DNA from: Pseudocercospora fijiensis CIRAD86
Taxonomy: Eukaryota > Ascomycota > Dothideomycetes > Mycosphaerellales > Mycosphaerellaceae
Assembly: GCF_000340215.1 (NCBI RefSeq)
Contig: NW_006921537.1
Location: 1,019,011-1,083,010 of the forward strand
Reading direction: 5' to 3'
DNA length: 64,000 nucleotides
Every line of letters starts with the position of its first letter. Within the stretch, counting starts at the first letter, position 1. Below are positions 3,142-50,215 of this stretch, one piece after another. The translations under genes and the position numbers were made by a program. Under the pieces are notes generated by a model, which ran no database searches, was not told where the DNA came from, and saw nothing but the letters and a program-made list of their open reading frames with translations.

Positions 3142-4250
3142 TCACGGATCGCCAAGTACGGCTTCACGTTGGACGCCAGCTTTACGCTTAAGGCCAACAA
3201 GGTAAGCCTCACGGCTTTCCTTGCGCGAAGAATCGGGCTTGATGCGATGGACCTTCTCAAAGAGCTTCTTCAAGCGCAGCTCCAGAGCATGGTCTTCAGC
3301 ACCAGTATAGAATTTGCAAAGAAAGTTCCCTCCGCTCGCCAAGGTATCAAAGCAGAACGTCAGAGCAGACATGCACAGATCCTGACATCTCATCAGTCCG
3401 GATCGGATTTGTAGAAGTCGTCTCTTCAACTACTCACCATGCTCCCTCCATGATCCCGCGCCACAATGCCACTGGTGTTCATGAGCCTGTTATATGGGTT
3501 AGAAACGCTGCGTACCCATGTAGAGGTCACCAAGGGCCAAGGTTCTGACATATCGCTTAAGACAACCTGCACGACTCTGCCCTCGGCGAGATCAAGTTGT
3601 GCCTGGGTCATGCCTCCTTTAGGTATCTCCTTGAGCTTCCTCTCCTCTTCAGCAGCATGTTTTTCGAACTCGAGGATGCTTTGATTTGCCGAGCTCAGAT
3701 CGTCCTCCGTGACATCCCCTTCCGTAATATTCTTCCGTCTTACTCTGCCTCGATCTGGGTCGCTGACGAACTTTCGCACCTCTTCTCGGATTTCTGGGCT
3801 CAAGAAATTGCCTTGTAGCGCGTTGACGCCTCGCGGAGGTTGGGCAGGAATAATGTCAATGCCCACCACACGTCCTCCCGGGCTTACTCTATTGACTGCA
3901 ACCTGGCTCCAACTCCCAGGCGCAAAGCCTAAGTCGACCACGGTATCGCCTTTGTGGAAAAGGCGGTATTTCTCATTAATCTCCAGGAGCTTGAAGGCTG
4001 CTCGAGACTTCAGGCCCGCGACCTTGGCTTCTCTTGAGTAGGCATCCTTTCCCTGGCGTGCTTTCCATCGTGTCGAAGACGAGCCTGATGCGAGGCAATG
4101 CTGCTGGTCGTGGCGTCCAGGTCTAATCCATGTGTATGTCGAGCATATTGGCGACAGAAGAGTCGATGCCGGTAAGCTCGAGATCCGGCTATAATATTTC
4201 GGATTCCTGCATAGATTGGCGAGTGCTTGCTCCGTTCTCCTTGCAAGCAT
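3142..4250 (-). CDS. MRM2: Mitochondrial rRNA 2'-O-methyltransferase (FtsJ/RrmJ family)
   Basis: SAM-dependent methyltransferase predicted to 2'-O-methylate a uridine of mitochondrial large-subunit rRNA. Two exons (4250-3438 and 3381-3142) with a 56-nt intron (donor GTGAGT, acceptor CAG) give 350 aa. The N-terminus (MLARRTEQALANLCRN) is basic and Ser/Arg-rich like a mitochondrial presequence. The FtsJ core follows: SRAAFKLLEI (Lys87), DLGFAPGSWSQVA (SAM loop), VVLSDMSEPW (Asp233), GGNFLCKFYTG (Lys294) and RKESREAYLVG (Glu329). These complete the K-D-K-E catalytic tetrad. An insertion of roughly 60 residues between the SAM loop and the Asp233 strand is typical of fungal members. Intact. Confidence 0.93.
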
Positions 4251-4365
4251 CGCCAGCTCACCGGCCTTTACAAGTCGATGGCGCTATGCAATAATGCAAA
4301 TAACATGGAAGACCGCTTCGCTGTGTTCGCAAAGAAAGAAACAAATTTCATATTCACAGCCATTG

Positions 4366-4923: not shown

Positions 4924-6659
4924 ATGGCGGCTGTTCCTCTGTCAACGCTTCAGTCTAAGCCTTCGGCTATCACCAGCACTGAGCCCGTGGACGAAGACGC
5001 GGAAGCTCGAGACTTTGACATCACCAGTATCAAATCTGATCACGATGATCAGGACCCGCTGCTCGAGAGCGATGTTGAGGGAAAAGCCAAGGATGATAAC
5101 CAATGCAGAGAAGGAGTTTCAAGCACGAAAAGAGCCTGGCGTAGACCAGCGGTATGCAAAGCACAGCATCACAAGTGAGGACAATCCATTTTGACAACCA
5201 TTAGATGTACTGGCTAGTCCCAGTGTATTTGCTCTACACCCTCGGCTACGGAGGCATATGGGTGCCCAAGCTCGACCTTATTTACGATCTTACGTGCCGT
5301 GCCTACTGCATCGACCATCAATGCAAGGCAGCATCGAACGCCGTGACAAGCAGCCTCCTTCATGCAAGAAATGATAGGTGCCGTGCTCCTGAGATACAAG
5401 GTCTCGCCGCGGAGTTTGTGATGGGCTGCAATCTGCTTGGGGGAGTAATGTCAATATTTACTTGTCCTAAGTTTGGGCAAGCTTCCGACCTGTATGGGAG
5501 AACGAGGATTCTGGCGATCGGAGGGTCGGGCATGCTGGTCAACTGCATCTTGACCATTCTCGTGGCGACTTTCCCCGAAACATTTCCACTGCCATGGCTC
5601 TATGCGACATACATTCTCGAGTCAGTTCTTGGTCCCTACGCCTCAATCATGGCTATTGTCAACTCCTATGCCGCAGATATCACAACGCCACAACAAAGGA
5701 ATGTAGCATTTGGATACCTGCAAGGCTGTCTCTATGCGGGGGTTGCTGCTGGCCCATTACTTGCCGCCGGTATCGTCCAGCTCACCGGTAGTGTCGTCCT
5801 AGTCTTCTGGCTCGCGCTGTTCGGCGTAGTCATCTTCATGTTCTGTATGGCTTTCGTGGTTCCAGAGTCCATGACTGAGCATCAAAGAACAGCCGCACGT
5901 GACGCGTATGAAAAACGGAGAGCACACAGTCATGGTCGCTCATGGTACGCTCGACTCAAGCCTCAGAGCTTACTGGCATCTTTGAGGACGCTCTGGCCAA
6001 ATGGGACTGGCACGTCACCAATTCTACGGCGGAACCTGGTTCTACTTGCGACCATCGATACCACCTTAGAAGGCATTGTTCGGAGCTCATTTAGCATCAT
6101 AGTATATATTTCCATACTGCGCTTTGGCTGGGACACATCGGCAAAGTCTGTTTTCATGGGTGCAATCAACATTGTGCGCGCTGCAGGTCTGGTGCTCCTG
6201 CTACCACTTATCACCTGGTACTTCAAGCGGAAAAGCGGTAAAGGACCACGACCGCCGACTGGCCGTGGCTGCGACAACTTCGATCTTGGTCTCATTCGTT
6301 GCGGGGCGATTTTGAATTGTCTGGGTTGGACAGGTTACGCTATGGCAACGTCACCGATTCTCTTTGTGATATCCGGCATTTTCATCGCGCTCGCAGGGAT
6401 CGGAAGACCGGTTGTACAATCCTCGCTGACCAAACACGTTCCCTCAACCCAGACTGGTCTTTTGATGGGGGCGACTGCGCTATTGTATGGACTAATGAGG
6501 GTTTTATCGCCTATCTTGATGAACGGATTCTACACAGCTACTGTGGGTGTTATGCCTGGAGCCACCTTCGCATGCTTGGGAGCAGTCTGCGCCCTGTTGT
6601 CTGCACTTGCATTTCTGCTCAGACCAGGAGTCTTCCTTGATGAGACAGAGTTGCAATGA
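4924..6659 (+). CDS. MFS transporter, first gene of the candidate cluster
   Basis: Major facilitator superfamily permease, probably exporting a small molecule across the plasma membrane. Two exons (4924-5151, 5205-6659) with a 53-nt intron (donor GTATGC, acceptor TTAG) give 560 aa. The first ~75 residues form an acidic cytosolic tail (DDQDPLLESDVEGKA). The membrane domain begins YWLVPVYLLYTLGYGG. A motif-A-like loop (FGQASDLYGRTRIL) follows the second hydrophobic segment, and several further hydrophobic helices follow, with a basic central loop near RTAARDAYEKRRAHSH. It resembles fungal DHA1/TetA-like transporters. It sits next to the methyltransferase gene in tail-to-tail orientation, only 65 nt apart. 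The substrate is not predictable; export of the cluster product is inference. Confidence 0.88.
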
Positions 6660-6724
6660 TCGATGCATTGTGGTCTATTCAGTATTCTAGCTCTGAGAAC
6701 ATCACTCAACGCTGCGGTCGAGTA

Positions 6725-8332
6725 TCAACATGCTTTCTGAAGGAGATACACGGCCCCATCATCACGCTCATTCTGCCATTCGTTCGTCACAGCAAGACCG
6801 GCATCACGAAAGAGCAGTCTCAACTCGGCCCGGCTGTATTTATACGACTGGCTGAGGAAAATATGCTCTCCCCTCGCAATCTTGATTGTCTCCTTCAACT
6901 CTGGACTATAGGAGGACGGGATTTCGAACGCCAAGGCTTTGCTGGCTTTGACAAATCGCTGTAGGCCAGCACGATCAGCATTACTTGCTAGCTCTTGCGC
7001 GCATGAGGACCTGACTTACGATATGTCTTTTTCGCAGATTGTCCCAGCGAGCGATGTACTCCCAGTCTCGGGCATCCTGCAATGCTAATGCGGCGCTGCC
7101 GCCAAGTATCTTTCCTGCATTTCGAATCCCGTTCTGAGCATATTTGCGCCAGTGGGTGGATTGCGATCCGTATGCGGCTGCCAGACGTTCTTGGTCTTGG
7201 CAGCTGTCGATGCCTATGAGTATGCAATCCCCAGGACCAAGCGCCGCGACGTGCACGAAATTGCGCAGCAGAGCGACAGCCGCTTCGGGTTCGAAGTTGG
7301 TGAATGATGAACCTAGCCAAAGTAGGCACTTCCGCTGCTCTCTTCCGCTGCATGCAGGATCACGCGTCTGCTGGGAAGCAAGTTGATCTTGCAGAGCCTG
7401 AAGGGCCTCTACGTACGGAGCGCATATCCCGTGGACAGCGATTTTGTCCTTTCCCGAAGGCTGGTGCGGAGATTCTTTGTGGTTGCACAAAAATGACTTA
7501 CTAGCCACTGCATTCGCCAATCGAGCGCAGAGGTCATGATATTGCAAGTCCACCTGCGTGAATCTCGTCAGTTTCATCAACATGAAGCCACTGTGCCAGG
7601 ATTCAACGTACAGCACAGTAACTTGCTGTGAATATGTTATGGGTGGTCGGCAGAGCGTTGATTTGGCGATGCATGGATTCGAGGAGGACGAGGGCTTTGT
7701 CTGGTCGTCTGAAACTAGTCAGTCTGCCCTTGGACTGTACGAAGTGATCACTCCTACCCTGCTCCAAGATCAACCACATTCAAGTGAGCCAAGTCGCCAT
7801 CTTTCACTGGAACAGCATCAAAGCCGCGTGCAGAGTCTTGCCTGGTACGTTTCTGGTGCGGAATGCTAGACGCATCGAGAACTTCTGAGGCCTGCAAAAG
7901 TCATTACGATGCCAATGCTTGCCAGTTGGTAAGTAGCACTCACGATTTCGTCTACATTATCGCGCAAGATCGTGATCTCCTCACGATACAGATAATATCC
8001 ATCACTGTGCGTAATAGCATCGTACAATCGGATGCCATCGCCTTCGTAAAGTACAGCTGATCTCAGACGTCAGGAATCGCCCTAAGAAGGAACTTATGGC
8101 CTACTGTACAAATGGGAAGGCTCTTCGACCAATTTAATCGGCCTCCGTTCTCGTCGATTATCCAATTCTGCTCGTTCTGCGTGAAACTACGGATTATCTG
8201 GTGTCGGACTGCTGTATCGTGGTCACGAGGCCTCTGGTCGCGCAAATTCAATACGTCGACCGGAGTAGCTGTTGGTCTATTGGGACATGGTGAAAAGTAC
8301 TTGGAAGCGTACCAGGCGCTAGAGGCTGGCAC
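6725..8332 (-). CDS. EgtD/EasF-type SAM-dependent amino-acid N-methyltransferase
   Basis: Member of the histidine-specific methyltransferase fold family (ergothioneine EgtD/Egt1 N-terminal domain; ergot-alkaloid EasF), which methylates alpha-amino groups. Six exons were reconstructed: 8332-8110, 8056-7944, 7891-7758, 7708-7612, 7553-7020 and 6958-6725, with introns of 53, 52, 49, 58 and 61 nt. Phase closes to 444 aa. Landmarks: KSLPISVLYEGDGIRLYDAI and GYYLYREEI (residues ~70-100, the LYDE-G-LF/YY region), VVDLGAG (~151-157, SAM loop), SYCAVDLQ (acidic strand end), GIDSCQD and SQSYKYS near the C-terminus. The E-x-S pair that holds the histidine ring in EgtD reads S-Q-S here (Ser403), so histidine is an unlikely substrate. 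The gene diverges from the decarboxylase gene across a 538-bp shared promoter. The start at 8332 is the best ATG but not certain. Confidence 0.82.
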
Positions 8333-8441
8333 GAAGCTTCAGCAGCGAAGGACGGATTGTTTCAGTCGAGAGACAGTGTCGCTCGTCTCATGACTGCGGG
8401 ATTTTGCTCGTCTCCCGATGCAGGCACGCAATGTGAGTAAC

Positions 8442-8472
8442 AGCACACCGCCCATAGGCTGTGTGGTGTGCT
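8442..8472. promoter_or_regulatory. Inverted repeat in the bidirectional cluster promoter
   Basis: Perfect 8-bp arms, AGCACACC (8442-8449) and GGTGTGCT (8465-8472), are separated by 15 bp. A GCC/GGC pair inside extends the symmetry. It lies within the 538-bp region between the divergent N-methyltransferase (start 8332) and decarboxylase (start 8871). This is a plausible site for a dimeric pathway regulator, but no such regulator gene is seen in the cluster. Confidence 0.35.
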
Positions 8473-8870
8473 CGTTAAGCTGTGATTGAGAAATAAAGAA
8501 ACGGCACTTGCCAGCACTGGCATAAGAATTTATTCGCCGACGAAGAACCCTCGCGTCGGCCCGTCCCCACCCAGCTACACTTCAGCAGGGTATAGACGAT
8601 CCCGGCCTGGACTAATGGTGCATCACATCAGGCTTCATTGCACTCGAGCTCTATTTCCATCACTTTTCGAGTCATGCCATTGCTACAGGCTCGTATGGTA
8701 TACGAGTGGCCGATACGCAAGAGCCATGTCGATATTCCGCAACGGCCCCGAATTCAGCGGGGCATCGTCGAATCTGCGTGAAGTTGAACTCAGCAACTCG
8801 TGATCACGTTCGGATTTTGTATTGTCTAGACCAGGAAGCGCCACGACTGAACGCGTCTCGCACCGTGATC

Positions 8871-10603
8871 ATGGAGAAGAGTCGGCGGCATGACTGTATA
8901 CCTGCTACAGGTCTTACTGCTCAAGCAGCCAGCGAGCTTATCAGACGACATCTCGCGTCGGATGCTGAGCCTGCTCTCAATCTAGCGGGCTACCACAATA
9001 CTTTCATGGAGCGGGAGATTGAAGACATCATGTTTGAACATCTGGTCTGTACGTTTCCGTCACGTGTATCAAGCAATCTCACTGACATTTGATAGCCGAA
9101 GAATATCACACATCACGAGGCATATCCGGCATCGAATGAGATTGAACGTGACTGTGTGACCATGATTGCGGAGCTGTTCAACTCACCTGTCGATTGCAAC
9201 GGGCTCACAGCTGTGGGCACTTCTACCGTCGGCTCCAGCGAGGCAATCATACTTGCTGTACTGGCAGCGAAGCGACGATGGGAAGGCGAGTCTGTGTTTG
9301 CCACAGGTCGGAGAAACCGCTGATGGTGAACACACAGAGAAGCGCCTTACTCAAAGAAAGTCGACAAACGCGCCGAATATGATTGCGAGCTCATTGGCCC
9401 ACGTGTGTTGGCAGAAAGCAGCTCTGTACCTGGGGATCGAGCTACGATTCTGTGGAATTTCTGAAAATACTCTCGCGATGGAGCCGCATAGAGCAATCGA
9501 GCTCGTAGATGAGAACACCATTTTAATTGGTGCTGTCCTCGGTTCATCATTGACGGGCACATATGATGACGTCCAGTGCTTGAACGACTTGCTGATGGAG
9601 AAGAATCACGCCACTGGTTTGGACATCATGATCCATGTTGACGCTGCTTCGGGAGGTTTTGTGGCGCCGTTTCTCGTTCCTGAGCTCGAATGGGATTTCA
9701 GACTTCCCCTCGTTAGCTCGATCAACGTTTCTGGTCACAAATGTAAGCTGTCCGTAACCATTGATGGACCGGGACCAGACTAATTTTGGTAGATGGGTGA
9801 GCGCTCAATACAATGCATTGATTCCAACGTCACTGACGATCGCACAAGCCTCACTTATGCTTCGGTCGGCTGGGCCTTGTGGCGATCGAAAGAGCTTCTA
9901 CCTCAAGATCTACTTTTCACTGTCGACTACTGTGGTGCCTCTCACATGGTGTCGTTTACGTTGAACTTTTCGAAGTCCGCAGTGAACGTCATTGGCCAGT
10001 ACTATCAGCTGATGAGACTCGGTTCGTTTGAGATCTCAATCGTAGAGTACCTGGGAAGCTCATTTGTTTATAGGAAAAGCCGGCTATGAGGCAACTATGC
10101 GCCGTCTAGCAAATACAGCAGAAAAAATCGCGCAAGGCATTGGAGCCATCCAAGATGGCGCTTGTTTCCGTGTCTTGAGCAAGAACGACAAGCGTGGCCT
10201 TCCAGTCGTTCTCTGGTGCTTGAAGAAAAGAAATTGTCGTGATGGTGAGTTCCACGATTGTGCCGGTATTCGTTGCTACTAATTTGAAGCTAGAGTACAC
10301 GATTGCTCGTCAGCTGCGAACCAAAGGTTGGATCATACCAGGTATTTATCCATGTCCGAAGCTAGAGTGCGTTTGCTAACCTCATTAAGCGTACGAAGTG
10401 AACACTTCTACAACTTCTTTCACTGTCATGCGGGTCATTGTCCGTACTGACCTCACTGAAGAGCGCTGCACTTCATTTCTTTCTGATCTCAGCGATGTAA
10501 GTGTAGCTCAGCTTAGGACTTTACAGCTTACGCTAACACTGGCCAGGTCGTGCTAAGCTTGGAAGCAGAAAGCGTGGGAGATATGGAGGCTGCTAGACTA
10601 TAG
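8871..10603 (+). CDS. Glutamate-decarboxylase-type PLP decarboxylase
   Basis: Group II pyridoxal-phosphate decarboxylase, predicted to remove CO2 from an amino acid. Nine exons: 8871-9044, 9096-9293, 9340-9742, 9793-9796, 9849-10021, 10074-10244, 10294-10341, 10390-10496, 10547-10603; introns 46-52 nt. The total is 444 aa. Landmarks: NLAGYHNTFMEREIEDIM (GAD N-terminal block), GTSTVGSSEAI (phosphate loop), HVDAASGGF (Asp225 contacts the pyridine nitrogen), INVSGHK with Lys258 as Schiff-base lysine, then YGLTYASVGWALWR. The YG of the HKYG motif is spelled through a 4-nt exon. No C-terminal calmodulin tail. The first donor is a weak GTCTGT. The start MEKSRRHDC was chosen near the family N-terminus; the frame is open further upstream. 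Within the cluster the substrate may be a modified amino acid rather than glutamate; this is inference. Confidence 0.85.
9793..9796 (+). other. Four-nucleotide micro-exon (ATGG) of the decarboxylase gene
   Basis: Exon 3 ends after the catalytic lysine codon plus one T. A 50-nt GT-AG intron (GTAAGC, branch-like CTAAT, TAG) ends at 9792. Four bases follow, then a 52-nt intron (GTGAGC, branch-like CTGAC, AAG) starts at 9797. Joining T + ATGG + C gives TAT GGC, i.e. Tyr-Gly, restoring the invariant HKYG motif and the downstream frame. Treating the whole 9743-9848 as one intron does not close the frame from the strong GTAAGC donor. Confidence 0.75.
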
Positions 10604-10625
10604 ACTGCTAGATCGCATGGGAAGC

Positions 10626-12424
10626 CTACAACCTCGAATCATGTTTCCAGCCCTTTGCGTCCTTGAGATGCAGCTTCGGTCTCCTTGCTCGTTCTTCGAG
10701 CTCTGGAAATTTCCCAATGCGATCTGGTCGCCATTTCCACAGCTCCGACAGCTCTTGATCCAATTTCCCCTCCATTGCCTGGACAATGTACTTTCCGACA
10801 TTGGGCATGTTCTTAAATGAATGTCCAGATCCTCCTGTTGCGATCATCAATGACTCGGGTGAGTCTGGATGATAGCCGATCAACCAGTTGTAGTCGAAAG
10901 CTGTCTTGATTCAGCTCTCGGAGTCATAGAATCATCACGAAGCGATACTCACTTTCCATATCCCAGCATAATCTTAGCACGGTCAGCACAGTGCTCGGAA
11001 AAGATTGTGCAAGCTAGTTACCTGGAAGACTCGATCTCTGCTTCTGTGAGCTCAGATAAAATCCAGCGAGTAAACTCAATGGTCTTTTGCTGCGCTTCCC
11101 ATGGCTGCGTGTCAGTCGGATGGTAGGCTCCGTCTCGAGGAATGGAGTGATGACCCCAAGGGCGTTTTGTATCCTTGATATTAATGTACGAGAAGTCAGT
11201 GCTTAGGCAAGGGTCAGCTACATAAAATCGAGCGCGCCCATCCGACGTAACTCACTTGCAAATCTTCATGATTCGATCCTTCTTTGGTGGAAAGCTGGTA
11301 TTGTCAATGAACTATATCTGTTGTGAGATCTGGTTGACTGACCAATAGCCTCTTCTGGAGCTACCAAGGAGTCAATAGGTACAGTAGAGTATAATCAACG
11401 CATGAGTAGACTTACATGTCGATCACAGGCATGTCCTTGTATCGCTCGTATTGCTCTGGTGTCAGTCGAACATGTGTGACCACATATGCAGTCTATAACT
11501 AACAAGTCAGCCATCCCACGTTAAGACACAAGAAACGTCGAGTCTGTAACCTACAGCCTGTAATTGCGACTTGAAATCTAAAAGCGTATCGCTATACGCC
11601 CCAACAGTGAGGACGATTTTGTCGGCGTACCAGATCGTTCCATCCTCGGCCTCGACTCCACAGACTGCGGTGGACGGCTCTCTTCTCTTCAAGCTCACGA
11701 CAGTGCCTGGCTTCCCATGAACGAAATTGACACCGAGTTTGCAGCACTCGCGATACAGTACTCTCATAGCCTCGACAGAATCCACCCAGCCGGCATTTTT
11801 GTTGAAGATGGCTCGAAAATCTTGTTTGCGTTCGTGATGTCGGCGATCGTAACCTAGGAATGGGAATTTCTCAACTGCAGTAGACCAATCTGGAAGTTCA
11901 ATGACCTTGGATGAATCTCCATGGAGCTTTGTGTTTTGACAAGAACGATCGTATGCCTGAACTCGACCGAGCTCAGTGGTGCCGTCGGTGCCCCATATCC
12001 TAGGAGGAAGCATGTGAATTTTTTGAACTCTAGGGATGCTTATTGTCGTACACTCACCATCCTGTGTGATGGAACACATCTTTGAAAAGGGGCTCCTGCC
12101 ACAGATGGAAGGCCTCGTGGGCGAGCCGAGTGTATATTGGATCAACGTACTCTGTACGAACAATCTGCGCGCCAGGTCAACTGAGTATTGCAACACAATA
12201 TTGCGAAGTGGTGAGCTTTACTTTGTTTAGATCGTAGCCAGCAGAGGACGGCGAGGGCACCGGCCATCGATCCAGACAGCGTATGTTTGTGTACCCGGCC
12301 CGAGCTAAGTGCCATGCTGTCGACAGACCTTCATATCCCAATCAACCATGAACTATCAATATATAACGTTCCACTTACCAAATGTTCCAGTGCCGACTAT
12401 GAGAATTGTCGTCGATTTCTCCAT
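10626..12424 (-). CDS. FAD-dependent amine oxidase, amadoriase/FsqB-like, peroxisomal tail
   Basis: Flavoprotein of the sarcosine oxidase/fructosyl-amino-acid oxidase family, oxidising secondary amines to imines. Ten exons: 12424-12379, 12328-12222, 12164-12058, 11999-11555, 11492-11416, 11360-11343, 11294-11256, 11201-11022, 10972-10953, 10900-10626; introns 48-62 nt. All phases close to give 437 aa, the usual amadoriase length. Landmarks: ILIVGTGTFGLSTAW (FAD Rossmann loop), SSAGYDLNKIVRTEY, PVIDISRRGYCFPP, HHSIPRDGAYHPTDT, RLCWDMETFDYNW with Cys342 at the covalent-flavin position, and GGSGHSFKNMPNVGKYI. It ends SRL, a canonical PTS1. Exons of 18 and 20 nt are unusually small; the 20-nt one carries Cys342. 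The 3' end lies 22 nt from the decarboxylase stop. Some homologues (FsqB) make C-C bonds in alkaloids. Confidence 0.85.
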
Positions 12425-12993
12425 TGCGAACGGTGTAAGATTTAGAGGTAGCAAGACTTCGATACGAGCAAATATGATCTCCGTCGCTGCTTTGATCAGT
12501 TTCTCGCTGCAGGATATTGATCTCTGCACCACAGCTTTAGAAGCGGCAAAGTTTCCGAGGATCGAAAGCTCATAGTCAGGCCAATGGAAATCGAAAATGG
12601 CGCTGACGATCATAGTTCCCCATTGCATTGTCTGACGATGACCGTCTTTTCCTGCCAAGCAAGTGATGCTCTCCTTCGCGATGCGTAGCCGAAGATTGAA
12701 AGAAGTGTAGCCGCTCTACCTTACCTTGCAACATAAACTCATGTTACATTGTACCTTACCTCCCTGGCCATTCAGACGAGCAACCAATTTAGCCTCAAAG
12801 ATACCCGACCAGCTCTGCTAGCATCAAATAGGCCCAGACTATCAGGAGATGTATCAATCAGGACAGGCTGGAACCCATAGCTCCGCAAGCGGATAAGGGA
12901 ATGGTGAAATGACAAGCCTTACAAGCCCTTCAAGAATGCCATGTATCACATGTAGTGCAGTATTGATTGCTGATATGCCATCGTTCTCGTTAA
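12425..12993. other. Intergenic region between FAD oxidase and O-methyltransferase
   Basis: About 570 bp lies between the FAD oxidase start and the O-methyltransferase stop, both on the minus strand. It should hold the oxidase promoter and the O-methyltransferase terminator. No further coding exon was recognised. Confidence 0.4.
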
Positions 12994-14058
12994 TCACAAT
13001 CGTTGTCTCGAATCCGACTTCAATCGAATCTCCGACACCCCATCGAAAATCGGGAGCACATTAACCTCAACCCTAGGATCAGACGCAACGAAAGCATTGA
13101 ACTCCCTAACCAGCTCCCCAGCCTGTTCCCAGTGATGCAAATCCAGCGGCTCTGGAAGATTCGTGGTGTTGTGGGAACTGACGGCGAAACTTCTCGCAAA
13201 CACTAGAAATATTTCGTCAATGCCATCTTGAAAAAAAAGAAAACCTCTGCTGCTGCGATCGTACCGTTGTCGACCAGTATGACACCTCCTTGTGCCAGGA
13301 GACCGCGGTCCAGAATTTTGGAGACGATGGGTTTGTACGCGGAGAATTCTAGATCGACGAAGATGATATCGAAAGGTTCGATCAATTGTTGCAATCTGGA
13401 GGAATCCACTCAGATTCGTGCAAGGCATAGGAGTGAGTGCTGCATGGACCTACGCATCTTCAGCCGAGGCGTGTATCACCCGGATCCGATCCATGTGCCC
13501 AGTAGACTGAAATCTAGCTTGTGCCTTGGCAGCGAGAGCTTCGTCCATTTCGATTGTAATTATCTGTGAGCATCGCATTAGCGTGTTCAGGGCGAGAGAT
13601 CGTGGTATCGATACCTGGCCTCGGCTCGCAGCAGTTCCCTCGTACCAAGCCATCGCACTGAGTCCCGTATAACAACCTATATCCAGCACTGCCGTGTGGA
13701 CATGATCAGCTGAGCGCCCAGATCAGACATGGTGAGCCTACCTACCTCGTCTTGCTCCCATGTCGCGGGATTTTTGTAACATCCATTGTGCCTGGCCGAT
13801 ATGAGAGGTGTGATTTCGACGTGATGCGACACCTAAGAATCCGTACCTGCAGGATTGAAGACGCTCTATCAGCATCCGGGAAATTCTCGACGGTCCATTG
13901 AGCATGTGATTGAAGGGCGGCCGAGATGCCGGTGGAGGAATCGAGAGAATACTGGTCTAGTCGTCGAACGACATCGACCTAGGAACTTCATTAGCAAAGA
14001 TTGACTTCGCCGCTCGCACACAACCACGGACCGGTAGTGACAGGAGGCTGCAAAGCAT
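12994..14058 (-). CDS. O-methyltransferase, caffeoyl-CoA/catechol OMT type
   Basis: SAM-dependent O-methyltransferase of the metal-dependent catechol/caffeoyl-CoA class common in fungal clusters. Seven exons: 14058-14032, 13978-13847, 13791-13746, 13688-13615, 13563-13454, 13395-13265, 13202-12994; introns 51-62 nt. They close to 242 aa. Landmarks: HAQWTVENFPDADR (N-terminal helix), MGARRVLDIGCYTGLSAMAW (SAM loop), IITIEMDEALAAKAQ (acidic strand), FDIIFVDLEF (metal-Asp region), GGVILVDNVFARSF and LPIFDGVSEIR (C-terminal strand). The start at 14058 is the least secure part: the frame is open upstream to about 14142 without an ATG, so a small extra 5' exon is possible. It diverges from the oxygenase gene across about 1 kb. 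A hydroxylated aromatic intermediate is the natural substrate guess. Confidence 0.82.
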
Positions 14059-15041
14059 GATCGGGATTCCAAAGCGACAGTTTTTTTGCGGTGGAATGAG
14101 TTGATCAAGCACAGGCTGTTGCTGTTCGATCGTCCAAATCACCGTTTAGATATACCCCTCCATGCACGTGTGGTAGCCTGATGTTCCGCATCGCTTCCCT
14201 CGTCGCCGATATCTCGATGTTACTCGTGTATAAGCGACGCTTTTAAGGTCGAGCGGTGTGCGATCACCAGATAGAGCGGCATATAGACAATGACCATGTA
14301 GCATCAACTGCATCATCCTGCCACCCTCTCCAAAGAGTCTCTGCACATCGAAGTGCTATCCACGAGTGGCGGACCGCCGGATAACAGTCTGCTATTCGCA
14401 GTGATCCTGGATTTCAAGGGTATGCGGGATATTCACTGTCATCCCGAGAAGCTAGATGAACAGCGAACGATGTCGTGCTAAGGTTGAGCCCACGCGGAAG
14501 GTCCGAAAGGGCTCGATCCGGACCATGGCATCAGCAAAGTTCAACAAGGCCATGGTATGGTTCCAGGGTGTTGTATGGCACGTGGTTGTTCCGAAGATTT
14601 ACAGCGTCGTTTGAACACTTCGGAGTGAAAGTGGGTATCTCTCAAATCCTTGGATTGCAGCGAATAGCAAAAGCTGTACGTGGTCTAGAAGCCAAAGCTG
14701 TGGAGGCATCAAAGGTCTTCTTACACCTAGAATTTGCCGTCAGTCGGCAAGACATTGGTTGAATACCCTACACAGCAGCTTCACGACGAGGATGTATGTG
14801 ATCGCGATTGCGCTTCGCGTTCGCCTGCGTATGATCCCATCCCATCCATTCAGAGGCCGAGATCAAATTTGACACTGCATAGCGAAGATGAAGGGAATAG
14901 ACAAGGCATATTTGCGGAGCAATACGTCTCGTTGAGGCCCTTTGTGCTCGGCCAAGTCTTGCCATCGTATCTATCTCTCTGCTTCGTTGCCAGACTCCTC
15001 TTCCATTTCATTCAATATAGGTTGAGGTAACGATAGACACC
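14059..15041. promoter_or_regulatory. Shared upstream region of O-methyltransferase and oxygenase
   Basis: About 980 bp between two divergently oriented cluster genes. No conserved exon was found in either strand; the open frames at 14475-14762 and 14734-15030 have no domain. It probably carries both promoters, and possibly an unfound first exon of the O-methyltransferase. Confidence 0.4.
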
Positions 15042-16080
15042 ATGCTTGCAACGATACCACTCGAAGCACTCATCTCAAATGAACAGAAAGCCGTAGAGAG
15101 ACTGGTCGAAGCCGCTTCAAACGACGGTTGCTTTTACCTCGACATCTCAAGCGCAAAAATTCTTTTCGATGCAGCCGACCAGATTTCCGTAGCAGCAGAC
15201 TCATTTTTCAATCTTCCGGTCCACGAAAAGCTGCTTTATGAGATGGATCATTTCACAAATTTGCACATGGGCGGGTGCGTCGTCCTGAGATGATTTTCTT
15301 TTGGCCCTGCTGATAAAGAGATTGAACAGATACAAGACGCTCGGGAAACACAGTGGAGTCAAACAAGGCAAGCGAGATGCTTTTGAGAACTTTCTCGTGC
15401 CGTTGAACGCTCTAGTCGGGCTGCAGGAGAATCTTTTGGCCTGGCCTGCTGCGATCGAAAACAAGCTTGATTTGCTATGCTGGTTTGAAATCGAATGTCA
15501 CAGAGTGTGTCAGCTAATACTGGAACGCTTGTCGAGCGTACTGGGAGCTCAAGACGTGCCTTTTCAGCAAAACCATCGATTGGACGAAATGTCAACCACG
15601 TCCCTGGCCTTGTTGAAGTACCCGCCATCATCGGCCCTCGAGGGGGGTAATGCAGGTCATATGGCACACACGGACGTGGGCTCGCTCACTCTGCTTTTCA
15701 CCAAAACACCAGGACTGGACATCTGGCGCGAATCGACAGCTTGTTGGGCACCCGCTCTACCTCAATCAGGTTGTATTATTGTTAACGTTGGTGACGCGCT
15801 GAGCTTCATGAGTAAACGGCGATTCAAAAGCTGCTTGCATCGTGTCGTACCGATCACTGCGTCGACACGCTTTTCTCTTGCCTTCTTCCATCGTCCGGAG
15901 TTGGGTGCAAAGTTTCACGACGGCGAAGGACGAGAGTGGACCGGAGAAAGCTGGCATCGTGCAAAGTATCAGCTGTTCAGGGCGGACAATAGAGTGCAGG
16001 CTTCGAATGCGCTCCTGACAGGAAAGATAAATTTTCTGGGACACATAGATGAGCATGGCAGGACTCAGGTGACTGCATAG
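15042..16080 (+). CDS. Isopenicillin-N-synthase-like 2OG-Fe(II) oxygenase
   Basis: Non-haem iron oxygenase with the DIOX_N plus 2OG-FeII_Oxy layout, using 2-oxoglutarate and O2 for hydroxylation, desaturation or ring closure. Two exons (15042-15274, 15330-16080) with a 55-nt intron (GTGCGT...ACAG) give 327 aa. The N-terminal domain runs IPLEALISNEQK through SFFNLPVHEKLLYE, then GGYKTLGKHSGVKQGK. The catalytic core shows AHTDVGSLTLLF (His191, Asp193), CLHRVVP (His248) and TRFSLAFF (Arg258-x-Ser260, 2-oxoglutarate carboxylate clamp). The iron triad is complete. It converges on LYS9 with a 95-nt gap and marks the right end of the cluster. Homologues occur in many fungal pathways, so the exact reaction is open. 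Confidence 0.9.
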
Positions 16081-16175: not shown

Positions 16176-17737
16176 TCAGAGAGTCTTTTCGATCATCTTG
16201 ATACCCTCTTGCTCGATCCTTTCGCGGATAGGCTCACAGATCTCATCAGAATATGGTGCTAGGATGCCAGGTGTGTTGAAGGCCGGGTGGCCATCGAGTA
16301 GAAGTTGGGTGGCAATGCCGCATGTGACGCCGACAGAGAGTGACATGCCAGAGTAGCCCTTTGGATCGCCGAACAGCTCTAGGGTAGATGTGCGTGTTTC
16401 CTACCCTCAAGGTTAGTCAAACTTGAGGAAGGCCACAGACAACATTGACACACGTACCATACTGCCATCCGACCACTCAATCACAAACTTGTGCTGCAGC
16501 ATAACAAGGTCTCTCTCTCCAGGTTTGAAGCTCATTCTATTTTGCAGGTGCTCGGCGAGGGTATCAAGTAGGCTGCCCTTCACTGATGGTTTGGTGTCTG
16601 AGAACAAGTCCATCCAGCGGAGTCCAGCAATTACATAGTCTTGCTCTTTCTCATCAGCATAGCTCAGAATCTGTTTGATGCGAGCAATCAAAGATCTGGG
16701 TAGTCATGGTTAGCGCTTGCCATCTGTAGCATGTACAACGGTATGACTTACGCTTCGCTCGAGTCAGCCGCATTCACAGCTTTCGCAGTTGCGTCCGCCC
16801 ATGAGATACCTGCAGTCAGCCATGACTTTGGCTGCGTATCTAGCCATCCAAGCTTAAGAAGAGCTCTCGTCAGCTGAGGATTTCCGTCGTATCTTAGAGA
16901 GCCTCTGATGACAGTGTGAGCTTCGGGTATGTTGTACAGCTCCCTGAACGGCTTCGTGTCGCGATTCGGATAAGCCAAGAAGTCATATCCATCAACAACA
17001 TGGTATGGAGCAGCAACAGCCATTAGGTCTTCTGCTGGAATATCCACCTGCTTGCCATCCTTGTAAAAAGAAGCCGAGTTGCACTGGGACATGAAAACAC
17101 CTCGTGGTGACCAAGAGAACTTCATTCTCAGTGGATTGTCAGCAATTGCAGGCTCCGGGACGCCGCCGCAGTATGAGTAGAACTCTTTGATCTAAGTTGC
17201 AGGTCAGATGAAGCCTTGAAAGGCACGATCTAAGTGCAGAAATACCTTGCCGTTCTGCGCATGCACCTCGCTGATTGTTTTAACAGCGTATACATGGTCG
17301 ACACCTGGATCCACGCCGACCTCGTTCAACACCACAATACCAGCTTCTTTGATGGAATCCTCTAGTGCTCTGATAGCTGGTGAGACGTAGCTAGTCGTCA
17401 CTACATTCTTCTTGCTGCGGACCGCCGACTTGATGACCTTTGGATGATACACATAAGGAATGAGCGATATAACGAGGTCCGACGTAGCAATTGCTTTGTC
17501 GAGCTCTTCATCTGACTCGACATCCAGGCGTGCCGGCTTGGTGTGTTTGAGGCCCTGGGTCAGCTTTTCTGCAGTCTGTAGTGTGCGGCAAGCTGCAGAT
17601 CGTCAGTAAAGGCGAGAGCAAGTGCGTAGTCACCCCATACCGACTGTGATCTCGTTCTTTCCATTGCGAGAGAGGTACTCAACGCAAGGCCGAGCGACCA
17701 TGCCCGAGCCGAGGACTAGGATTTGCTTGAGAGCCAT
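16176..17737 (-). CDS. LYS9: Saccharopine dehydrogenase (NADP+, L-glutamate-forming; saccharopine reductase)
   Basis: Alpha-aminoadipate pathway enzyme: condenses aminoadipate semialdehyde with glutamate to saccharopine (EC 1.5.1.10), the penultimate step of fungal lysine synthesis. Five exons: 17737-17641, 17592-17246, 17191-16752, 16695-16458, 16400-16176; introns 48-57 nt. The protein has 448 aa, close to the family norm. Landmarks: QILVLGSGMVARP (Rossmann loop), DVESDEELD, LNEVGVDPGVDHVYA, YCGGVPEP, MKFSWSPRGVF and DGYDFLAYPNRDT. It is intact and probably a housekeeping gene flanking the cluster, although it supplies lysine-pathway intermediates. Confidence 0.95.
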
Positions 17738-47456: not shown

Positions 47457-48229
47457 GATGGGGTTCTGGGGGATGGAGAGGGAGGGGTGGGTGAGGAGAT
47501 GGTGATTTTGAGGGAGGAAGGAGGAGGGTTATGGTTTTTGCTTTTCTGAGGTTGGGTTTTTGGGAAGCGAAGCATGGTGTTATGGCGTTTACGAAGTTTT
47601 TTTTACCTTACGATGCTGGTATCATCGTATAACAGGAGAGAAGAAGAAGAAGGAATGTGATACCCCCCCAAGAGGACTACATACACGAACGGCGATGAAA
47701 TGCAGGAAAGGAACCGGGACGGCATGACAATAGTATAATTAATCTCACTCACTTTCTCATTCAACCCCCACTCTCCTTCTCCTTCTCCTTCTCATCTTTC
47801 CTCTACCTATCAACCTCCCTCACCATCCCCATCTGCAAAGCCCACGGCATCCCCATCCACATCGCCCGTTGCGTATGCCATTTTTTGGAGCCGTGGCAGG
47901 GAAACGAGGTTGTTCTTGGTAGATGACGAGAACGTATAGGAGCGACTCGGCACCAGTAACCGACTTTATCTGATCTTGACAGGATGTATGTAACTCGAGG
48001 GAGCAGATGAGGACACCCACTTATGTTGCCGAAGCTGTCCCTGTTTTGCTGCGATTGTCATCACGCGGGTCAATTCTGTCTATTGCGCGATTTTCTGAAT
48101 CAGGAATTGTGAAGAAAGCAGAGCATTTTGAGGTCATTTTGTATTACTAGGAAGTGTTGTGGACCGCGGGCGCGTTCCAAGAGTAGCAGCGCAGAGGTTA
48201 TCCACGTTCGAAAATTTTCGGCTTGGCGT
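47457..48229. other. 3' flank of DUF6594 gene, no gene
   Basis: G-rich then C/T-rich DNA with a CTTCTC repeat near 47765-47800; no coding feature supported. Confidence 0.4.
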
Positions 48230-48910
48230 TGCTTAAAAAAAGCCGGCGGTGAGTACCTCCCTAACCTAGGCTACCCCGGATTTCCTAGGTACGGTGTACA
48301 CTCTATATACGAACTTAAATTCCAACCCGGCATCCAATCATTTGAATTGGTTTGCTGTTTGACGAGTGTCCTTATACACTTTATTGAGGGCCTGAAATTT
48401 TCGGGAGCAGGGGTGTCCGGCTACTATATAGCGTTATAATCCTCCGGCGGCAGACTATTTAATACTTTGGACCTCGCTATAATAATAGCACAGTTCAAGG
48501 TATTAATTTTTAAATATTTTACGATCCCTTTTTTTTACTTTTTAGGAAAGGGGTTTTTTTCGAAGTCTATATATATATATATAATAAGATAGCATATATA
48601 GTAAAGAGTATATATAAACGTATATATAGAAAGTAAATATACTAGTTACAGGTATATATTTATAATGCTAGTATACAATATATTATAAGAGTATTAGGAT
48701 AGATTAGGCTAATATTAGTAGAAACTATACCTTTATTACCGGACAACTTAGTCCGTTATATAACCTAGATATATTCGAAAATCAAAGAAATATATACGTT
48801 TACTTAAATTATAGAATTAGAGCCGCGCGAGTTAGTATAATAGTCTAGCAACCTGTTAAGTTACTTAGATAGGAACTCGATAATAGAATTTCCTCTTAGT
48901 AGTTACAGTC

Positions 48911-49090
48911 TATTCTAAACGCCGTCTAAGTATAAAACTATATATAGTAGATTAATGTATAAAGTACTCCTCCTCGAAAGTTAAAACCTAACTCCGATAT
49001 AGTAGTACTACTACCTCCTATCCTAGACGCCGTCTAAGTATAAAACTATATATAGTAGATTAATATATAAAGTACTCCTCCTCCTCGAAA
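48911..49090. repeat. Diverged direct duplication in the AT-rich island
   Basis: Copies at 48911-48979 and about 49019-49090 share ~70 bp around CGCCGTCTAAGTATAAAACT and AGTACTCCTCCTCGAAA. They differ mainly by C/T and G/A changes (TCTAAACG versus CCTAGACG) and by one extra CTC. Confidence 0.75.
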
Positions 49091-49536
49091 CTAACTCGTA
49101 GACTTAGCGAAAATTATATATCTAGTATAAAAAAAAAGTCGATATACCTACTAGACGCCCTAGAGCCTTACTATTGCCCCCCCCCCCCCGATTAGGCTAA
49201 TACTTAGTACCCTATAGGCTATTATATTAGGGCGCCCCTAGACTAGATAGCTATAGAATACGGAGTATCCTATATATATCTCGATAAATACTAATCCGAT
49301 TTCAATAAAAATTATACTATTAGAACCGCGCGGGTCGGTTCTATAGAACGTAAAACTTTTATATAAATCGACGACCTTCGAATTTAGTATTAGTAGGTAT
49401 TAGCTAGTATTAGCTCTAACTTAATTCTTAACTATTAATAATTCTATTTCTCCCGGCTATACTACTTAATATAGTCCCTACTATATAAAGGCATATATCT
49501 TAAAGGAGTTATAAGATCGATAGGGGTTAAGAGGTC

Positions 49537-49569
49537 GTAGGTTCGAGTCCTATACTAGCTATTTTTTTT
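49537..49569 (+). ncRNA. tRNA-like T-arm (B-box) with terminator-like T-run
   Basis: GTAGG-TTCGAGT-CCTAT forms a 5-bp stem with a canonical T-loop, matching the Pol III B-box GGTTCGANTCC. It is followed by a 7-nt stretch (ACTAGCT), A, and eight T residues, the order expected at the end of a tRNA gene. No convincing A-box or matching 5' acceptor strand was found in the preceding 100 nt; AGCTAGT occurs 150 nt upstream. A decayed tRNA or a tRNA-derived element is likely. Confidence 0.35.
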
Positions 49570-49570
49570 A

Positions 49571-50215
49571 TTTATACGTAATTAATAGGAAATGTACTTA
49601 AATCTTTAATTAAATATTACTACTACGCAATTAATAGGAAATGTACTTAAATATTTAATTAAATACTACTACTATTAAGCTAATACCTTTATACGCAATT
49701 AATAGGAAATGTACTTAAATCTTTAATTAAATATTACTACTATTAAGCTAACACCTTTATACGTAATTAATAGGAAATGTACTTAAATCTTTAATTAAAT
49801 ATTACTACTATCAAGCTAATACCTTTATACGCAATTAACAGGAAATGTACTTAAATCTTTAATTAAATATTACTACTATTAAGCTAACACCTTTATACGC
49901 AATTAATAGGAAATGTACTTAAATCTTTAATTAAATATTACTACTACGCAATTAATAGGAAATGTACTTAAATGTTTAATTAAATATTACTACTATTCAG
50001 CTAATACCTTTATACGCAATTAATAGGAAATGTACTTAAATCTTTAATTAAATATTACTACTATCAAGCTAATACCTTTATACGCAATTAATAGGAAATG
50101 TACTTAAATCTTTAATTAAATATTACTACTATTAAGCTAACACCTTTATACCCAATTAATAGGAAATGTACTTAAATCTTTAATTAAATATTACTACTAT
50201 TAAGCTAATACCCTA
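49571..50215. repeat. 68-bp tandem satellite, ten copies, two shortened
   Basis: Each unit contains CGCAATTAATAGGAAATG, TACTTAAATCTTTAATTAAA and TATTACTACTATTAAGCTAA. The GGAAATG word starts near 49588, 49635, 49704, 49772, 49840, 49908, 49956, 50025, 50093 and 50160. Spacing is 67-69 bp except two intervals of 47-48 bp lacking the AAGCTAATACCTTT part. Copies are nearly identical, with scattered T/C changes. Confidence 0.9.

What the first reader, a model, noticed from the sequence alone, without database searches (positions are those of the whole stretch)
4924..16080. Six-gene candidate alkaloid/amino-acid pathway without PKS or NRPS
Seen: six adjacent genes encode an MFS exporter, EgtD/EasF-type N-methyltransferase, GAD-type decarboxylase, FsqB/amadoriase-type FAD amine oxidase, catechol-type O-methyltransferase and a 2OG-Fe(II) oxygenase, flanked by housekeeping MRM2 and LYS9. 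Known: EasF N-methylates an amino acid in ergot alkaloids, and FsqB oxidises an N-methyl amine to close an isoquinoline ring in fumisoquins. Inference: these enzymes could act in series on one free (probably aromatic) amino acid: N-methylation, oxidative cyclisation, decarboxylation, O-methylation, a final 2OG-Fe(II) oxidation, export. I know of no described cluster with this combination, and core-enzyme-based cluster finders would probably miss it.
Basis: partly seen in the sequence, partly recalled or inferred. Interest (0 to 1): 0.88.

Follow-up and report, generated by a model that had tools for sequence, protein, structure and literature searches.

The report
Amino-acid alkaloid cluster with remodelled decarboxylase
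Six neighbouring genes in the fungus that causes black Sigatoka of banana, one of them among the genes most strongly switched on in infected leaves, likely build and export a small nitrogen compound from free amino acids, and one of them is a relative of glutamate decarboxylase in which residues of the glutamate pocket have been replaced.

Summary
In detail: six adjacent genes (MFS, EasF-like methyltransferase, GAD-like PLP enzyme, FAD amine oxidase, O-methyltransferase, 2OG-Fe(II) oxygenase) lie exactly at 4924-16080, between MRM2-like and LYS9-like genes. All six splice by hand into open frames; two first exons are unresolved. The genome is Pseudocercospora fijiensis CIRAD86. Reading them as one pathway gains support, but its details change. 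(1) The decarboxylase passes the glutamate decarboxylase cut-off, yet its pocket is rebuilt (E. coli T62, F63, D86, Q163, T212, L306 become G, Y, H, H, S, C). Among the 120 listed relatives only the Pseudocercospora ones and, at five of six sites, Zopfia show this; a canonical copy lies elsewhere in the genome. (2) The FAD enzyme is not an FsqB orthologue, but it has the arginine and lysine implicated in substrate binding in FsqB. (3) A PLP decarboxylase needs a primary amine, so N-methylation before decarboxylation is doubtful. (4) Equal contig lengths put methyltransferase, FAD oxidase and decarboxylase together in P. musae. (5) The FAD gene was published in 2016 as row 5 of the infection-induced list (log2FC 11.1), and that paper lists a co-expressed cluster of matching composition, role unclear. 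No product is known.

The parts
4924..6659 (+). MFS transporter, 560 aa, 2 exons (4924-5151, 5205-6659)
   Evidence: model; PF07690 E 5e-19
6725..8391 (-). EasF-like SAM methyltransferase; six exons 8110-8276, 7944-8056, 7758-7891, 7612-7708, 7020-7553, 6725-6958; first exon (8375-8391 is one guess) unresolved
   Evidence: PF10017 187 bits; TIGR03439 174.6 bits, below its 205.55 cut-off
8871..10603 (+). GAD-like PLP decarboxylase with replaced glutamate pocket, 444 aa, 9 exons including a 4-nt microexon
   Evidence: public copy MYCFIDRAFT_155148, 99%
9793..9796 (+). 4-nt microexon that gives the conserved GHKYGL motif
   Evidence: relatives
8988..8993 (+). codons G40, Y41 (E. coli GadB T62, F63)
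   Evidence: alignment
9111..9113 (+). codon H64 (E. coli GadB D86)
   Evidence: alignment
9400..9402 (+). codon H145 (E. coli GadB Q163)
   Evidence: alignment
9547..9549 (+). codon S194 (E. coli GadB T212)
   Evidence: alignment
9931..9933 (+). codon C288 (E. coli GadB L306)
   Evidence: alignment
10626..12424 (-). FAD amine oxidase of the sarcosine oxidase/amadoriase family, 437 aa, 10 exons
   Evidence: 100% match to MYCFIDRAFT_46458; PF01266
12156..12158 (-). codon R54 of the FAD enzyme (FsqB Arg66, substrate-binding Arg)
   Evidence: spacing K51-x-x-R54 against FsqB R63-x-x-R66
12994..14058 (-). O-methyltransferase, COMT/PaMTH1 type, 246 aa, 7 exons; first exon (14020-14058) uncertain
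15042..16080 (+). 2OG-Fe(II) oxygenase, 327 aa, 2 exons; His191, Asp193, His248 and Arg258 present
3429..4283 (-). flanking FtsJ-family methyltransferase (MRM2-like), outside the cluster; stop-to-stop frame
16180..17602 (-). flanking saccharopine dehydrogenase (LYS9-like), outside the cluster; stop-to-stop frames, only 17207-17602 scanned

Best explanation
The six adjacent genes at 4924-16080 likely form one biosynthetic cluster, without PKS or NRPS, that would turn free amino acids into an exported N-methylated, alkaloid-like compound during growth in the plant. Predicted steps: the EasF-like methyltransferase N-methylates an amino acid whose carboxylate it still binds; the FAD oxidase oxidises that N-methyl amino acid to a reactive iminium, which closes a ring or is trapped by a partner; the GAD-like enzyme decarboxylates a different, still primary, amino acid that is not glutamate, before N-methylation or on a parallel branch; the O-methyltransferase and 2OG oxygenase tailor the product; the MFS protein exports it. 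Shown: gene order, open frames, residue changes, equal contig lengths in relatives, published induction of the FAD gene. Inferred: every reaction, substrate, order and product.
For: Open spliced frames. GAD: above TIGR01788 cut-off (471 against 380.4 bits) but T62/F63/D86/Q163/T212/L306 changed to G/Y/H/H/S/C, while N83, S126, S127, D243, A245, H275, K276 and R422 are kept (alignment). G40 and H64 occur in 6 of 121 aligned rows (window, its public copy, P. fuligena, P. musae, P. eumusae, Zopfia). Twelve rare shared columns tie Zopfia to Pseudocercospora, against at most 3 for any other row; clade support 100/99 on 36 chosen rows. A canonical GAD (S, F, D, Q) sits on C2. FAD: K51, R54, K277, C342, K376 line up with FsqB R63, R66, K304, C414, K448. 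Methyltransferase lines up with EgtD Y39, Y56, N166, Y206, S284 and has Ser at E282 (the stretch with Y39/Y56 is weak, i-Evalue 0.15; roles in PMC8593015). FAD gene log2FC 11.1 in infected leaf, row 5 of Table 1 (PMC5006380); [quoted passage not shown]
Against: No product or reaction is known. Locus tags of GAD and methyltransferase differ by 56 in P. musae and 26 in P. eumusae, so adjacency there is unproven. Only the FAD gene could be tied by ID to the induction data; the IDs of the 2016 cluster were not readable here and its text names no decarboxylase. The FAD tree puts Zopfia nearer to an Aspergillus/Fusarium group than to Pseudocercospora, unlike the GAD tree. Arg54 is common in the FAD family (77 of 104 rows), so it does not point to this pathway. 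FAD relatives occur in many fungi for which no remodelled GAD was listed. The best NCBIfam hit of the FAD enzyme, N-methyl-L-tryptophan oxidase, is far below its cut-off (90.3 against 257 bits). E. coli GadB D86N/H465A still uses glutamate, so D86 alone does not exclude glutamate. The methyltransferase start is unresolved. None of the six genes is a transcription factor, and no shared promoter word was found.
Confidence: 0.5

Rival explanations
1. One reading: all enzymes act in series on one aromatic amino acid, FsqB-like, to give an isoquinoline that is then decarboxylated.
For: FAD enzyme keeps FsqB Arg66 and Lys448 equivalents; FsqB cyclises N-methyl-dopa (PMC6222107); methyltransferase keeps amino-acid-binding residues.
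Against: PLP decarboxylation of a secondary amine is not expected (general PLP chemistry, recalled); none of the six genes is a phenol hydroxylase; FsqB Asp444, whose loss leaves 0.03% activity, is Gly here; FsqB itself gives only demethylated product from N-methyl-tyrosine.
Confidence: 0.15
2. A detoxification or uptake cluster: host amines or N-methylated amino acids of the leaf are methylated, oxidised and moved by the MFS protein.
For: Very strong induction of the FAD gene in infected leaf; amine oxidase, O-methyltransferase and transporter fit amine handling.
Against: A PLP decarboxylase makes amines rather than removing them; relatives of the GAD occur in Zopfia and in P. fuligena, which is not a banana fungus (recalled); two enzymes keep carboxylate-binding residues.
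Confidence: 0.15
3. The GAD-like enzyme is a second glutamate decarboxylase for GABA or pH control that happens to lie beside unrelated metabolic genes.
For: NCBIfam equivalog hit over cut-off; D86N/H465A GadB retains activity; a glutamate decarboxylase was reported in the proteome of a P. fijiensis strain, gene not stated in the passage seen (PMC10607838).
Against: Six pocket positions changed together, five of them shared with Zopfia; canonical GAD elsewhere; equal contig lengths with methyltransferase and FAD in relatives.
Confidence: 0.08
4. Ergothioneine- or ergot-type pathway, as the methyltransferase family suggests.
For: PF10017 and EasF/EgtD-like hits.
Against: Both NCBIfam cut-offs missed; EgtD E282 position is Ser; a separate EgtD-type match over positions 2-298 of 304 lies on C9, so the genome has another candidate; no DMATS match in the genome, though that search had no positive control.
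Confidence: 0.03

Closest known systems
Fumisoquin cluster fsqA-G (Aspergillus fumigatus, Clonostachys rosea)
   Same: N-methyltransferase plus a covalent-FAD amine oxidase on amino acids, with a transporter; FAD residues Arg66, Lys304, Cys414, Lys448 matched
   Different: No NRPS-like FsqF, ATP-grasp FsqD, phenol monooxygenase FsqG or Zn2Cys6 FsqA among the six genes (fsq gene list in PMC5999785, passages); has GAD-like, OMT and 2OG genes; Asp444 is Gly
Glutamate decarboxylase (GadB/TIGR01788)
   Same: Family, PLP lysine, R422 and most cofactor contacts (contact roles recalled)
   Different: Glutamate side-chain pocket replaced, Q163 is His, loop L306 is Cys
EasF / EgtD amino-acid N-methyltransferases
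   Same: PF10017 domain, amino-acid backbone-binding residues
   Different: Below both NCBIfam cut-offs; Ser at E282
Fructosyl peptide/amine oxidases and monomeric sarcosine oxidase
   Same: Nearest solved sequences (5t1e 9e-73, named only uncharacterized there; 6a6v 1e-72); covalent Cys, Lys51 and Lys277
   Different: Arg54 where the two aligned amadoriases have Gly; Pro269 where they have Glu (fructosyl-named P0167 likewise)
PaMTH1 catechol-type O-methyltransferase
   Same: Best PDB matches 4ymg/4qvk at 5e-54; the Asp and Asp-Asn positions kept
   Different: The Asp-x-x-Lys lysine position is Phe here
Co-expressed cluster Table S7J of Noar and Daub 2016 (PMC5006380)
   Same: 2OG enzyme, two methyltransferases, oxidoreductase, transporter; the FAD gene 46458 is in Table 1 of the same paper
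   Different: Gene IDs of S7J not readable here; the text names no decarboxylase and calls the role unclear

Membership tests
fumisoquin (fsq) cluster | NRPS-like core FsqF, ATP-grasp FsqD, phenol monooxygenase FsqG | tested here: not met
   None among the six genes; no condensation domain match on C6; the scored AMP-binding match on C6 is 2.9 Mb away (14 of 89 candidates scored)
fumisoquin (fsq) cluster | FAD enzyme orthologous to FsqB | tested here: not met
   6gg2 at 1e-22 against 9e-73 for 5t1e; D444 position is Gly
fumisoquin (fsq) cluster | N-methyltransferase orthologous to FsqC | not tested
   FsqC sequence not fetched
glutamate decarboxylase TIGR01788 | score over curated cut-off | tested here: met
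   471 against 380.4 bits
glutamate decarboxylase TIGR01788 | glutamate side-chain-binding D86 and T/S62 | tested here: not met
   H64 and G40; D86 role in PMC12961736; T62 role recalled
glutamate decarboxylase TIGR01788 | GABA formation | not testable with these tools
   needs an assay
EasF family TIGR03439 | score over curated cut-off | tested here: not met
   174.6 against 205.55 bits (the query held a provisional N-terminus and two extra residues)
EgtD histidine methyltransferase TIGR03438 | cut-off and imidazole-site E282 | tested here: not met
   112.2 against 290.9 bits; E282 position is Ser (imidazole role recalled)
N-methyl amino acid oxidase (FsqB/MSOX type) | covalent-FAD Cys, substrate-binding Arg and Lys | tested here: met
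   C342, R54, K376
N-methyl-L-tryptophan oxidase (NCBIfam NF008425) | score over curated cut-off | tested here: not met
   90.3 against 257 bits
amadoriase (fructosyl amine oxidase) | Glu of the FEPNE motif and Gly at the Arg54 position | tested here: not met
   Pro269 and Arg54; role of this Glu recalled
catechol O-methyltransferase | metal-binding Asp, Asp-Asn and catalytic Lys | tested here: not met
   Asp and Asp-Asn kept, Lys position is Phe (roles recalled)
2OG-Fe(II) oxygenase | HxD...H and RxS | tested here: met
   H191, D193, H248, R258

The most novel reading that the evidence does not exclude
The GAD-like enzyme is a new kind of PLP catalyst: its rebuilt pocket and loop cysteine let the carbanion left by decarboxylation attack the iminium made by the FAD oxidase. 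Two free amino acids would thus be joined by a decarboxylative carbon-carbon bond, giving a fungal alkaloid class made with no PKS, NRPS or amide-forming enzyme.
Probability: 0.07. Interest if true: 0.87.

Novelty: new variant of a known kind. Interest (0 to 1): 0.6.

Why it matters
If right, this is a core-less amino-acid pathway in a major banana pathogen, containing one of its most infection-induced genes, of a type that cluster finders keyed on core enzymes would be expected to pass over (not tested). The decarboxylase is a clear case where an automatic name (glutamate decarboxylase, over an equivalog cut-off) is probably wrong, and the Pseudocercospora-Zopfia residue signature gives a marker to find more such clusters. 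It makes the nature of a plant-induced fungal metabolite directly testable with three purified enzymes.

Tried and rejected
Considered and rejected: ergot-type (no DMATS match, but that search had no positive control); ergothioneine (Ser at E282; another EgtD-type match on C9); FsqB orthology; plain glutamate decarboxylase. Promoter search for a shared word in the four intergenic regions found no 7-, 8- or 9-mer in all four; shuffles gave 0.21 shared 7-mers on average: uninformative. In one search the row meant to be the C9 EgtD-type protein was another frame of that locus, so it said nothing; only the P. eumusae and P. musae rows were used. Literature: searches for GAD plus fructosyl oxidase clusters (10 papers), the locus tags (0 papers), EasF/GAD/sarcosine oxidase (1 paper) showed no title or abstract start describing such a cluster; a search on histidine-specific methyltransferase with decarboxylase terms listed 10 of 170 papers, among them PMC5006380. 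Two other P. fijiensis papers (PMC9002641, PMC10607838; passages) do not hold the numbers 46458 or 155148 in their main text. The early scripts had wrong splice sites; replace them. No structure prediction was run.
Full report
What is there. The window is contig C6:1019011-1083010 of a 73.9-Mb genome. The FAD and GAD models match Pseudocercospora fijiensis CIRAD86 proteins at 100% and 99% on a contig of the same length, 4,991,523 bp, so the organism is that fungus. Six genes fill 4924-16080. Splice sites were placed by hand; all introns are GT-AG, 41-98 bp. The decarboxylase has a 4-nt microexon that gives the GHKYGL motif. The methyltransferase body reads open to its stop (426 steps, the last a stop), but the ATG that aligns with the start in P. 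eumusae runs into a stop, so its true first exon is unknown; the first exon of the O-methyltransferase is also a guess.

Genomic setting. The flanks are housekeeping-like: an arginase-family gene, an FtsJ methyltransferase and saccharopine dehydrogenase. Scans for ketosynthase and condensation domains gave 17 and 30 matches, none on C6. Only the best candidates are scored in such scans, so these are lower bounds.

The decarboxylase. Against solved GADs, the query keeps N83, S126, S127, D243, A245, H275, K276 and R422 (E. coli numbers, read off the alignment with the 466-residue GadA chain), but T62, F63, D86, Q163, T212 and L306 are G40, Y41, H64, H145, S194 and C288. D86 contacts the glutamate side-chain carboxylate (PMC12961736, passages); the role of T62 is recalled, and T62S is active in E. 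coli (PMC10071571, passages). In 121 aligned rows (window plus the 120 listed of 7,999 hits), G40 and H64 occur in 6: the window, its public copy, P. fuligena, P. musae, P. eumusae and Zopfia rhizophila. S194 and C288 are likewise in no other row; H145 is in two others. Zopfia keeps the F at Y41. Zopfia shares 12 rare columns with Pseudocercospora; no other row shares more than 3. A tree of 36 rows that I chose from the 121 groups the four species with Zopfia at 100/99. Zopfia is a Dothideomycete of uncertain order, Pseudocercospora a member of Mycosphaerellales. A canonical GAD with S, F, D and Q at these sites lies on C2. Against this reading: GadB D86N/H465A still decarboxylates glutamate, so only the combined change argues against glutamate, and no assay exists.

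The FAD oxidase. Nearest solved sequences are 5t1e (9e-73, named uncharacterized) and fructosyl amine or peptide oxidases; FsqB (6gg2) matches at 1e-22. From the FsqB numbering, window K51, R54, K277, C342 and K376 fall on FsqB R63, R66, K304, C414 and K448, while Asp444, whose loss leaves 0.03% activity (PMC6222107, section 10), is Gly, as in 97 of 104 rows. Arg54 is found in 77 of 104 rows, so it is a family trait; in the fructosyl-named P0167 it is Gly, and Pro269 is Glu there. A tree of 70 of 104 rows (dropped: the public duplicate of the window protein, rows of 380 aa or less, and P0201-P0226; one P. musae fragment kept) puts the window in a 22-row clade (100/99) apart from P0167. Within it Zopfia lies nearer to an Aspergillus/Fusarium group than to Pseudocercospora, unlike the GAD tree, so the two genes need not have travelled together.

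Methyltransferases and oxygenase. The N-methyltransferase misses both the EasF and EgtD cut-offs but lines up with EgtD Y39, Y56, N166, Y206 and S284 and has Ser at E282 (chain numbers less 2; the stretch with Y39 and Y56 is weak). Y56, Y206 and S284 bind the carboxylate and N166 the amine (PMC8593015, passages); the imidazole role of E282 is recalled. It therefore looks like an amino-acid methyltransferase not specific for histidine. The O-methyltransferase is closest to PaMTH1-type chains but has Phe in place of the Asp-x-x-Lys lysine, which weakens catechol methylation. The 2OG enzyme has its metal and cosubstrate residues.

Co-location and expression. Equal contig lengths put methyltransferase, FAD and GAD together in P. 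musae, methyltransferase and GAD in P. eumusae, and GAD and FAD in Zopfia. Equal length is taken as the same contig (inference); locus tags of GAD and methyltransferase are 56 and 26 apart, so adjacency is open. The O-methyltransferase, 2OG and MFS genes were not searched in relatives. In PMC5006380 (section 5 and part 1 of 2 of section 12 read), protein 46458, this FAD enzyme, is the fifth of the 20 most induced genes in infected banana leaf (log2FC 11.1; 802 differential genes, 483 up). [quoted passage not shown] Its gene IDs are in a supplement that could not be read here; I take it to be this cluster.

How it likely works. Methyltransferase and FAD oxidase both keep residues for an intact amino-acid carboxylate, so they likely act in turn on one amino acid. 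The PLP enzyme needs a primary amine, so it likely acts before N-methylation or on a second amino acid. Ring closure as in fumisoquins is possible but not shown: FsqB cyclised N-methyl-dopa but only demethylated N-methyl-tyrosine (abstract), and none of the six genes is a hydroxylase of phenols. All reactions are predictions. A recent animal example of repurposed primary-metabolism genes forming an alkaloid bundle (PMC12833800, abstract and outline) shows that such core-less clusters can be real.

Noticed in passing
window 9793-9796: A 4-nt microexon in the GAD-like gene. The public models of the four Pseudocercospora species (P0004-P0007) lack the GHKYGL motif it gives, which suggests the same annotation error four times.
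   Followed up: partly
window 8276-8400 (minus strand): The start of the methyltransferase is unresolved: the ATG that aligns with the P. eumusae start runs into a stop; either an upstream exon is used or the 5' end differs in this isolate.
   Followed up: partly
FAD relatives P0147-P0157: A distinct clade of this oxidase holds rust fungi (Puccinia, Cronartium, Austropuccinia), function unknown.
   Followed up: no
C6:865648-866844 (L015): Another gene of this FAD oxidase family (37% identity) about 157 kb from the cluster on the same contig.
   Followed up: no
window 48001-50000: AT-rich tract (GC 0.36 and 0.29 per kb) in an otherwise about 50% GC window, perhaps a degenerate repeat block.
   Followed up: no
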